Assembly: GCA_002839855.1 (NCBI GenBank)
Contig: PGYV01000012.1
Location: 1-64,000, forward strand
Length of the DNA: 64,000 nt
Origin: Candidatus Goldiibacteriota bacterium HGW-Goldbacteria-1
GTDB lineage: Bacteria > Oederibacteriota > PGYV01
Reading direction: 5' to 3'
Shown here: piece after piece, positions 20,915-23,033 of the stretch
How positions within the stretch are numbered: the stretch's first letter is position 1
How the letters are laid out: every line of letters starts with the position of its first letter
Position numbers and translations under genes: made by a program
The notes under the pieces: generated by a model
Told to the model about the DNA's origin: nothing
Databases searched by the model: none
The model's input: the letters and a program-made list of their open reading frames with translations, nothing else

Positions 20915-22087
20915 CTACCCTGCGCTCATGACATTTAAAATCACTTTTACAATCGTGTCTTTTTCCGCGGGGGCGCTTATCGCAGTTAAAAGCGTAAGCG
21001 ATGCCAGCGCGCCGTTGCTGATAGACGTGCTGCCGTCCGGTTTAAAAAGCAGCCTGTTCTTTGCCAGGTAATATAAAAACAATATCGCGGCAATACGTTT
21101 ATTGCCGTCGGCAAACGGATGGTCTTTTACGGCAAAGTATAATAAATGCGCGGCTTTTTCTTCCGCAGTCGGGTACACATCTTTGCCGTTAAAAGACTGG
21201 TTTACCGCGCCAAGCAGGCTTTTAAGTTTATCAGGCCTGCCTTTTCCAAACAACGCGGATGCCTTTTTGCCTTTAATATATTGCACCTTTGATTTTTCAA
21301 TAACGCTGATAGCGTCACCATATGTAAGTTCATATTCCTGTTTCTTTTTACCGCCCGATTTAAGTTTCATATCATCATAATTCTGAAGAATATTCAGCGA
21401 ACCGGCAAAACTGTTAATGACCTCTATTAATTCCGCTTCAAGCCCCTTGAAGCTTTCATCATTAATTGCCCTGTAAAGAATCCCCACGGCATTCTTAAGT
21501 TCATCAAGTTTCATAGTGCTGTCTTTAAGCATTTTAGAATTAAGCACGAACCCTTTTGTAACATATTCGCGCAGAACGGACGTAGCCCAAACCCTGAACC
21601 GGGTGGCTTTAATTGAATTCACCCTGTATCCTACAGAAATAATCATATCCAGATTATAAAAAACAGTACCGTAACTTTTACCGTCTTCTGCAGTATGTTC
21701 CATAATGGAACTTACTGCATTTTTTTCAAGTTCTCCTGAATCTATTATATTATTAATATGTTTGGTAATAGCAGGCCTTTTAACCCCAAAAACCGATGCT
21801 ATCTGTTTTTGTGTCAGCCATATGGAATCATTAATAAGTTTTGCCTGCACAGAAGGCCCGTTCACCGATTCATATATTGCAAGTTCGCCTTTTGAAATCC
21901 AGCCATAAGCCGCCGGTTCTTCATCGCTGACAATAAAATCATCCGCTTCAGATGACGGAATTACATAATCCCTGCCCGCCTTTTTTGCTTTTATCTGACC
22001 TTTTTTAACTTTCTTATAAACCGCTATACGGCTTATATTCATAAGTTTTGCAAGTTCCGGTATGCTGTAAAATTCCTTCTTTTCCAT
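20915..22087 (-). CDS. HTH-RhuM-Fic/Doc three-domain protein
   Basis: 390 residues. Residues about 5-52 are an excisionase/MerR-like helix-turn-helix (YSIPELAKLMNISRIAVYKK). Residues about 65-185 match the RhuM family (SIWLTQKQIASVFGVKRPAI, YNLDMIISVGYRVNS). Residues about 200-390 are a Doc-type Fic domain with HPFADGNKRIA (His323). Doc-type Fic enzymes phosphorylate or AMPylate targets. No separate antitoxin gene adjoins it. AAGGAGGG precedes the ATG, and four GTTAAC sites lie just upstream, suggesting self-control by its own HTH. Annotated relatives are called RhuM/Fic/DOC proteins; the added HTH is less usual. Confidence 0.9.
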   Translation of the reverse strand: MEKKEFYSIPELAKLMNISRIAVYKKVKKGQIKAKKAGRDYVIPSSEADDFIVSDEEPAAYGWISKGELAIYESVNGPSVQAKLINDSIWLTQKQIASVFGVKRPAITKHINNIIDSGELEKNAVSSIMEHTAEDGKSYGTVFYNLDMIISVGYRVNSIKATRFRVWATSVLREYVTKGFVLNSKMLKDSTMKLDELKNAVGILYRAINDESFKGLEAELIEVINSFAGSLNILQNYDDMKLKSGGKKKQEYELTYGDAISVIEKSKVQYIKGKKASALFGKGRPDKLKSLLGAVNQSFNGKDVYPTAEEKAAHLLYFAVKDHPFADGNKRIAAILFLYYLAKNRLLFKPDGSTSISNGALASLTLLTAISAPAEKDTIVKVILNVMSAG

Positions 22088-22100
22088 AAACCCTCCTTAT

Positions 22101-22148
22101 GTTAACTTTAACAAAGGTTAACTTTGGTTAACTTATTAAAAGGTTAAC
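22101..22148. promoter_or_regulatory. Four-site GTTAAC operator-like array
   Basis: GTTAAC occurs at 22101, 22117, 22127 and 22143, spaced 16, 10 and 16 bp. This makes two related 22-bp blocks (22101-22122 and 22127-22148), each flanked by GTTAAC. The array starts 13 bp upstream of the HTH-RhuM-Fic start codon. Confidence 0.75.
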
Positions 22149-22242
22149 ACAGATAGAGTTATCAATCAAGTATAAATTACAAAACAATAAAAAGGATTTT
22201 TATTGAGGTGCCGTCAGATCAATATACCTTATTCGGGGCGTT

Positions 22243-22509
22243 TTATATCCTTCCGGAAATTTCCCGTGCGGATTGAAAATCAAAAACCGGGTTTTCCGTG
22301 CCGCCATTAACACGCAGCCCTGATACCGGCTCCTGATTAATCATTTTTTTACCGCAATCACTATTTTTCTTTGCTTCTTCTATCCACTCTTCAACTTTTA
22401 CCAGCTGTTTTGTTAATTGATTCTTTTTCACCGAATCGCCTGCACAATCAAGCGCGCGTATCAGTTCATATTTTTTTCGCAGCAGCGCCTCCGTTTGAAC
22501 ACTCCCCAT
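22243..22509 (-). CDS. Small coiled-coil-like protein, unknown
   Basis: 88 residues with a very strong ribosome site (GGAGGGG) before the ATG. The first half is charged and helical (TEALLRKKYELIRALDCAG, LTKQLVKVEEWIEEAKK), and the second half is likely disordered. It has no signal peptide and no motif I recognise. It lies between the RhuM-Fic gene and a divergent XRE regulator. It is supported as a gene mainly by its ribosome site and codon pattern. Confidence 0.55.
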   Translation of the reverse strand: MGSVQTEALLRKKYELIRALDCAGDSVKKNQLTKQLVKVEEWIEEAKKNSDCGKKMINQEPVSGLRVNGGTENPVFDFQSAREISGRI

Positions 22510-22691: not shown

Positions 22692-23033
22692 ATGGACATC
22701 TATAAAGAAACAGGAAAGAGATTAAAGGAAATAAGAACGAAATCAAATATTACACAGGAAAGGCTTGCCGAGTTATCGGGAATAAGTTCTAATTTTATAA
22801 GCCAGATAGAAAGGGGCAGAAATAAATGCAGCCTTGAAACCATACACAAACTTGCAATAGCCCTTAACACCCCTGTTACAAATCTTATTAATTTTAAATC
22901 CGCCCCTGTTAACAGCAAAGACAAATACCAGAAGCAAATAGAACTTTTGCTTAAAAATCTGAACGACAATGATAAAAATCTTGTCATGGAAATAACAAAA
23001 GACGTCTACGGAAAACTTAAAAAACGTAAATAA
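22692..23033 (+). CDS. XRE-family HTH transcriptional regulator
   Basis: 113 residues. Residues about 6-65 are a full Cro/CI-type DNA-binding domain (RLKEIRTKSNITQERLAELS, then FISQIERGRNKCSLETIHKL). The remaining 50 residues are a helical tail (LLKNLNDNDKNLVMEITKDV) that may dimerise. ACGGGGTGG precedes the ATG. It is one of the few plus-strand genes and is divergent from the 22243-22509 gene. Inverted repeats in its promoter suggest autoregulation. Its targets are unknown. Confidence 0.88.
   Translation: MDIYKETGKRLKEIRTKSNITQERLAELSGISSNFISQIERGRNKCSLETIHKLAIALNTPVTNLINFKSAPVNSKDKYQKQIELLLKNLNDNDKNLVMEITKDVYGKLKKRK

What the first reader, a model, noticed from the sequence alone, without database searches (positions are those of the whole stretch)
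22101..22148. Symmetric four-site GTTAAC array before the HTH-RhuM-Fic gene
Four identical palindromic hexamers are spaced 16-10-16 bp, which places two 22-bp paired-site blocks at fixed phase. The adjacent protein has its own N-terminal excisionase-type HTH, so a cooperative autorepression switch controlling a Fic toxin is likely.
Basis: partly seen in the sequence, partly recalled or inferred. Interest (0 to 1): 0.6.

Follow-up and report, generated by a model that had tools for sequence, protein, structure and literature searches.

The report
Conserved four-site operator of HTH-Fic genes
Four copies of GTTAAC sit on the promoter of a toxin-like gene, and the same array sits in front of every related gene found in at least five bacterial phyla, so it is very probably the switch by which a small DNA-binding domain turns its own toxin operon down.

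Summary
The array is real. Four perfect GTTAAC sites lie at 22101-22148, spaced 16-10-16, and GTTAAC-N10-GTTAAC occurs only at these two places in the 2.86 Mb genome. On the gene's strand the first site forms the -10 of a TTGATT-17-TGtTAACCT promoter, and the last ends next to the ribosome-binding site. All 24 loci gathered by homology to the N-terminal HTH carry the array (20-24 of 24 letters, from at least five phyla). None of 94 RhuM(-Fic) homologues without that HTH carries it, nor any of 19 other HTH_17 genes in the same genomes. The centre spacing is always 10. In most relatives the HTH is a separate ~85-aa gene coupled to a Doc-like Fic gene, an apparent toxin-antitoxin operon; in this order HTH and array were captured once by a RhuM-Fic gene (PADLOC candidate defence PDC-S23). 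Autorepression by the HTH is the best reading; binding and cooperativity are untested. Unexpectedly, the RhuM domain has been swapped between genera while HTH, array and Fic stayed. I found no report of this HTH_17-Doc pair.

The parts
22143..22148 (.). operator site 1 in gene direction; overlaps the predicted -10
   Evidence: conserved in 24 loci
22127..22132 (.). operator site 2 (inner pair)
   Evidence: TTAAC invariant in 24/24
22117..22122 (.). operator site 3 (inner pair), always 10 bp from site 2
22101..22106 (.). operator site 4, nearest the ribosome-binding site
22108..22112 (.). extra TTAAC half-site that makes a second TTAAC-N4-GTTAA inside the array
22164..22169 (-). predicted -35 (TTGATT), 17 bp from the -10
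   Evidence: the same 17-bp geometry in 18 of 24 loci
22141..22146 (-). predicted -10 (TAACCT) with an extended TGt before it, embedded in site 1
22091..22098 (-). ribosome-binding site AAGGAGGG
   Evidence: sequence
20915..22087 (-). 390-aa gene: excisionase-type HTH_17 (aa 6-47), RhuM (Pfam match aa 125-195; homology from about 66), helical linker, Doc-like Fic (Pfam match aa 284-341, motif HPFADGNKR at 323)

Best explanation
The array is the autoregulatory operator of the gene that follows it. The N-terminal winged HTH of the HTH-RhuM-Fic protein binds the TTAAC half-sites, most likely as symmetric pairs on TTAAC-N4-GTTAA (one helical turn apart) with further subunits on the outer sites. 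It thereby covers the extended -10 element and the predicted start of transcription and represses the gene when protein is present. The operator and HTH come from a family of two-gene HTH-Doc toxin-antitoxin-like operons, and were captured once as one unit by a RhuM-Fic gene. Shown here: the array, its conservation, its position on a predicted promoter, its exclusive coupling to this HTH subfamily in the sets tested, and phylogenies that fit a single capture. Inferred: binding, repression, stoichiometry, cooperativity, toxicity of Fic.
For: 24 of 24 loci found by HTH protein homology, not by the DNA pattern, carry the array at the start of the gene: scores 20-24 of 24, per-locus shuffles at most 18. 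94 RhuM(-Fic) homologues without the HTH score at most 18, and 19 other HTH_17 proteins in seven of the same genomes at most 16. In 384 genomes, 8 of the 10 places matching the three-site pattern lie just upstream of this HTH. Where Fic or its motif is lost (L012, L148, L150) HTH and array remain, so the array follows the HTH and not the Fic. The predicted promoter, with spacer exactly 17 and its -10 inside site 1 or site 3, is seen in 18 of 24 loci. Within G256's phylum the promoter has moved along the array, and the -10 is still inside a GTTAAC. Spacer DNA diverges while the hexamers persist: window against G002 has 24/24 hexamer letters and 11/24 spacer letters. In sites 2 and 3 the inward letters are invariant (48/48) and the outward ones are not (35/48), as an inverted repeat predicts. 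The HTH model resembles BldC and Pukovnik Xis, wHTH proteins related to ones that bind DNA as multimers. CccR is a proven HTH-Fic autorepressor (PMC9755527).
Against: No binding data exist. The HTH model is of moderate confidence (pLDDT 81) and its fold matches are weak (best E 0.018). The palindromic hexamer hides the orientation of the subunits, and BldC binds direct repeats, not inverted ones. A trans-acting regulator that travels with these operons is not strictly excluded. The -35 in the window is only 4/6, and the tool's promoter scan does not list this promoter because TAACCT matches TATAAT in only three letters.
Confidence: 0.83

Rival explanations
1. The array is bound by another regulator, for example the divergently read XRE repressor at 22692-23033, and the HTH of the Fic protein has a different task.
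For: An XRE gene (HTH_3) lies 550 bp away and is 99% identical in G001, where the array is also kept.
Against: The XRE gene is absent from the held flanks (1.5-3 kb) of the array in G002, G003, G005, G007, G010 and G032, while the HTH is always there.
Confidence: 0.07
2. The array acts with an activator or with DNA bending: HTH binding as a BldC-like filament tunes or activates the promoter rather than simply repressing it.
For: Fold relatives BldC and RdfS oligomerise on DNA and can act in more than one way (PMC5859096, PMC11963761); the array has four to six phased sites.
Against: Sites 1 and 2 cover the -10 and the predicted start of transcription, the usual place for a repressor.
Confidence: 0.08
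3. The array is an attachment or recombination site of a mobile element, with the HTH as its excisionase.
For: The HTH is of excisionase type; one genome (G118) keeps the array 6 bp after typA without the operon; flanks differ between species.
Against: Array position is tied to promoter and start codon and not to insertion borders; no match to the HTH in the phage, plasmid or IMG/VR collections.
Confidence: 0.02

Closest known systems
CccR of Yersinia pseudotuberculosis (HTH-Fic autorepressor, PMC9755527)
   Same: One protein with a Fic domain and an HTH; represses its own promoter by binding a palindromic site near -35/-10.
   Different: Its HTH is C-terminal, its operator is AGATAATCAT-N26-ATGATAATCT and no RhuM is described; here the HTH is N-terminal excisionase-type with four GTTAAC sites.
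Phd-Doc toxin-antitoxin operon
   Same: Two-gene operon, DNA-binding antitoxin first, Doc-fold Fic second; the Fic part of the window protein is closest to P1 Doc among solved structures.
   Different: The antitoxin here is an HTH_17 protein ending in EYGEVLRLLGKE, not Phd; operator GTTAAC in a 10-bp-centred array.
RhuM-Doc/Fic fusions, PADLOC candidate PDC-S23
   Same: Residues 67-388 match PDC-S23 at E 1e-108; RhuM-DOC fusions were proposed as toxins in defence loci (PMC3710099).
   Different: The ordinary members lack the N-terminal HTH and lack the array (0 of 94).
BldC / Xis (HTH_17) family
   Same: Closest solved folds to the stand-alone HTH; BldC forms cooperative multimers on repeats about one DNA turn apart.
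   Different: BldC binds AATTXXXX(C) direct repeats; here the half-sites look like inverted TTAAC / GTTAA pairs and a C-terminal helix with a conserved tail is added.
Fic/Doc antitoxin families of Makarova 2009 (AbrB, Xre, YhfG, PHD; truncated MerR with PIN)
   Same: A small DNA-binding partner before a Fic/Doc toxin.
   Different: No HTH_17/excisionase-type partner for Fic/Doc appears in the passages read (PMC2701414).

Membership tests
Autoregulatory operator | sites overlap the core promoter of the regulator's own gene | tested here: met
   predicted -10 inside site 1 or 3 with a 17-bp spacer in 18 of 24 loci
Autoregulatory operator | sites co-occur with the regulator and are absent without it | tested here: met
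   24/24 with HTH, 0/94 and 0/19 without
Autoregulatory operator | regulator binds the sites and changes expression | not testable with these tools
   needs EMSA, footprint, reporter
Type II toxin-antitoxin (stand-alone relatives) | small antitoxin gene directly before, and overlapping or abutting, the toxin gene | tested here: met
   HTH gene of about 85 aa followed by a Fic gene of about 140 aa with ends from -13 to +7 bp in most of the 18; exceptions: L144 and L150 have no full Fic after the HTH, and L129 and L132 have shortened ones
Type II toxin-antitoxin (stand-alone relatives) | toxin and neutralisation activity | not testable with these tools
   only the motif HPFxNGNKR and the conserved antitoxin tail are seen
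Type II toxin-antitoxin (window gene) | separate antitoxin that neutralises Fic | tested here: not met
   single gene; the antitoxin tail EYGEVLRLLGKE is missing after the HTH, and no [ST]xxxE[GN] inhibitory motif
PDC-S23 (RhuM-Fic candidate defence) | RhuM plus Fic domain match | tested here: met
   PDLC04965 E 1.4e-108
PDC-S23 (RhuM-Fic candidate defence) | protects against phage | not testable with these tools
   candidate family only
BldC-type DNA binding | direct repeats bound head to tail | tested here: inconclusive
   GTTAAC is palindromic; letter variation favours inverted pairs

The most novel reading that the evidence does not exclude
A portable 'operator plus HTH' unit of a previously unnamed HTH_17-Doc toxin-antitoxin family was captured by a RhuM-Fic defence gene. 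In that gene the RhuM domain is an exchangeable recognition module, swapped between genera inside a fixed frame of operator, HTH and Fic, as in specificity subunits of restriction systems.
Probability: 0.45. Interest if true: 0.72.

Novelty: new variant of a known kind. Interest (0 to 1): 0.55.

Why it matters
It gives a defined DNA target for an uncharacterised antitoxin-like HTH family that runs across several little-studied phyla, and a DNA signature by which such operons, their relics and their captured forms can be found. The link between operator spacing (upstream outer distance 16-17 bp in fused proteins, 18-20 bp in stand-alone ones) and protein architecture makes the binding geometry testable. 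The RhuM domain swap makes the unknown role of RhuM testable: it behaves like a recognition module.

Tried and rejected
Chance clustering in AT-rich DNA: rejected. The array belonging to RhuM or Fic rather than the HTH: rejected. The array as a general HTH_17 feature: rejected. The neighbouring XRE protein as the common binder: unlikely. Phage, plasmid or IMG/VR carriage of the HTH: no match (the viral scan used only one short peptide pattern, so it is weak). Paper searches for HTH_17-Fic pairs and for a GTTAAC operator found no description of this system. The sigma-70 consensus scan did not list the promoter because its -10 rule is stricter than TAACCT. The raw count of array patterns in 384 genomes is not by itself clearly above the reversed-pattern control (15 against 13 strand-counts); the evidence is where the matches lie.

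Full report
THE OBSERVATION. GTTAAC alone is not enriched in the window (21 against 20.7 expected), so the arrangement is the signal. In 2.86 Mb the pair GTTAAC-N10-GTTAAC occurs exactly twice, both here. No simulated window gave a comparable cluster. With a four-site score (outer 15-20, centre 9-11) the window scores 24 of 24 here and at most 18 elsewhere.

WHERE IT LIES. On the minus strand the array runs from 61 to 14 bp before the ATG at 22087 of a 390-aa gene: HTH_17 (aa 6-47, also TIGR01764 excisionase), RhuM, Doc-like Fic with motif HPFADGNKR at 323. Reading in gene direction: TTGATT (22169-22164), 17 bp, TGtTAACCT, whose TAACCT (22146-22141) lies in the first GTTAAC. The second site is at the expected start of transcription, and the last site ends two bases before AAGGAGGG. 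In 18 of 24 related loci a -35 (nine of them perfect TTGACA) lies exactly 17 bp before the TAAC of site 1 or site 3, though 16 and 18 were allowed. In some genomes of G256's phylum the promoter sits one step further along the array, yet its -10 is again inside a GTTAAC. This is the layout of a repressor site.

WHICH PROTEIN IT GOES WITH. Loci were gathered by HTH protein homology and only then scored. All 24 have the array (20-24 of 24; per-locus shuffles at most 18). The window itself is one of them, and G001's upstream DNA is a near copy of it, so about 22 are informative. They come from the window's phylum and at least four others (the separate phylum sets). RhuM(-Fic) homologues that lack the HTH have no array: 94 tested, best 18. 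Other HTH_17 proteins in seven of the same genomes have none: 19 tested, best 16, against 21-24 for the five of this subfamily. In 384 genomes the three-site pattern matched ten places; eight are directly upstream of this HTH. Of the other two, one is a relic (below) and one lies in an ORF. HTH and array survive where Fic or its motif is gone: L012 ends after RhuM, L150 has an unrelated gene next, L148 has HPFQNGNIR. So the array follows the HTH.

ANATOMY. The centre distance is 10 in all 24, with 9 and 11 allowed. The outer distance is 16-17 in the six RhuM-fused genes; in the 18 stand-alone ones the upstream outer distance is 18-20. Sites 2 and 3 keep their inward letters in 48 of 48 cases and their outward letters in 35 of 48. 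In L147 and L151 the sites read GTTAAG, CTTAAC, GTTAAG, alternating orientation. The unit is therefore probably an inverted pair TTAAC-N4-GTTAA, one helical turn apart, with flanking sites; L148 and L149 show six sites at 10-19-10-(18 or 19)-10. Cooperativity is plausible but not shown.

WHAT THE RELATIVES ARE. In 18 loci the HTH is a separate 82-87 aa protein with a conserved tail (EYGEVLRLLGKE and variants), mostly followed, overlapping or abutting, by a Doc-like Fic gene of about 140 aa. That is the form of a type II toxin-antitoxin operon. In the window's order the HTH, without that tail, is joined to RhuM-Fic. The fused HTHs form one group beside the stand-alone ones (95/93), and the fused RhuM-Fic proteins form one clade (100/100). 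A single capture of HTH and operator is the simplest reading. RhuM-Fic itself is PADLOC candidate PDC-S23, and RhuM-DOC fusions were proposed as defence toxins (PMC3710099).

MECHANISM. HTH binds the array, covers the -10 and start, and lowers its own transcription. The closest proven parallel is CccR, a Fic protein whose HTH represses its own promoter (PMC9755527); HTH-fic fusions were predicted to regulate fic expression (PMC2686095). The stand-alone HTH model (pLDDT 81) is closest to BldC and Pukovnik Xis, though with weak E-values; BldC binds repeats about a turn apart as multimers (PMC5859096, PMC11963761). In the fused gene no separate antitoxin and no [ST]xxxE[GN] motif was seen, so activity of Fic would have to be held by another part, perhaps RhuM. 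That is inference.

AN UNEXPECTED RESULT. Window and congeners G001/G002 share 92-96% of the HTH and 86-87% of Fic, but only 38-44% of RhuM. The window's RhuM is closest to that of G007, another genus (61%), and G001/G002 to G010 (57-60%) as well as to each other (62%). Trees conflict: the RhuM data reject the congeners as one clade (p-AU 4e-45), while the Fic data give them 100/98 and reject window+G007 (p-AU 2e-111) (the groups were chosen after seeing the identities). The RhuM domain has been exchanged inside a fixed frame of operator, HTH and Fic. That is how recognition modules of defence systems behave, and it is the most novel point here.

NOVELTY. Autoregulated Fic/Doc operons are a known kind. 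An HTH_17 partner for Doc with a 10-bp-centred GTTAAC array was not found in the papers searched, a library without most subscription journals. I rate it a new variant of a known kind.

Noticed in passing
window 21930-21460 (RhuM part of the gene at 20915-22087): The RhuM domain is 38-44% identical to congeners while the HTH is 92-96% and Fic 86-87%; it is closest to another genus. Inter-genus domain swap, strongly supported by conflicting trees.
   Followed up: yes
L137 1510-1544 (G118) against L127 (G260): G118 keeps a four-site array (10-18-10) 6 bp after the typA stop but lacks the HTH-Doc operon that its congener G260 has at the same place: a relic array or scar.
   Followed up: partly
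L004 3830-3976 (G002): A second, partial copy of the Fic C-terminal end (90% identical) lies downstream of the intact gene with another gene between.
   Followed up: no
L148, L147, L129, L132: Several stand-alone Fic genes look damaged (HPFQNGNIR, RPFQNWNKR, truncated frames) while HTH and array are kept.
   Followed up: no
window 22692-23033: XRE repressor, 99% identical protein in G001 but absent beside the array in the other species; with the 88-aa ORF 22243-22509 it forms a block kept only in G000/G001.
   Followed up: partly
stand-alone HTH (L131): Weak similarity to Mad1 of the MADS defence system (PADLOC mad1 E 7e-6).
   Followed up: no
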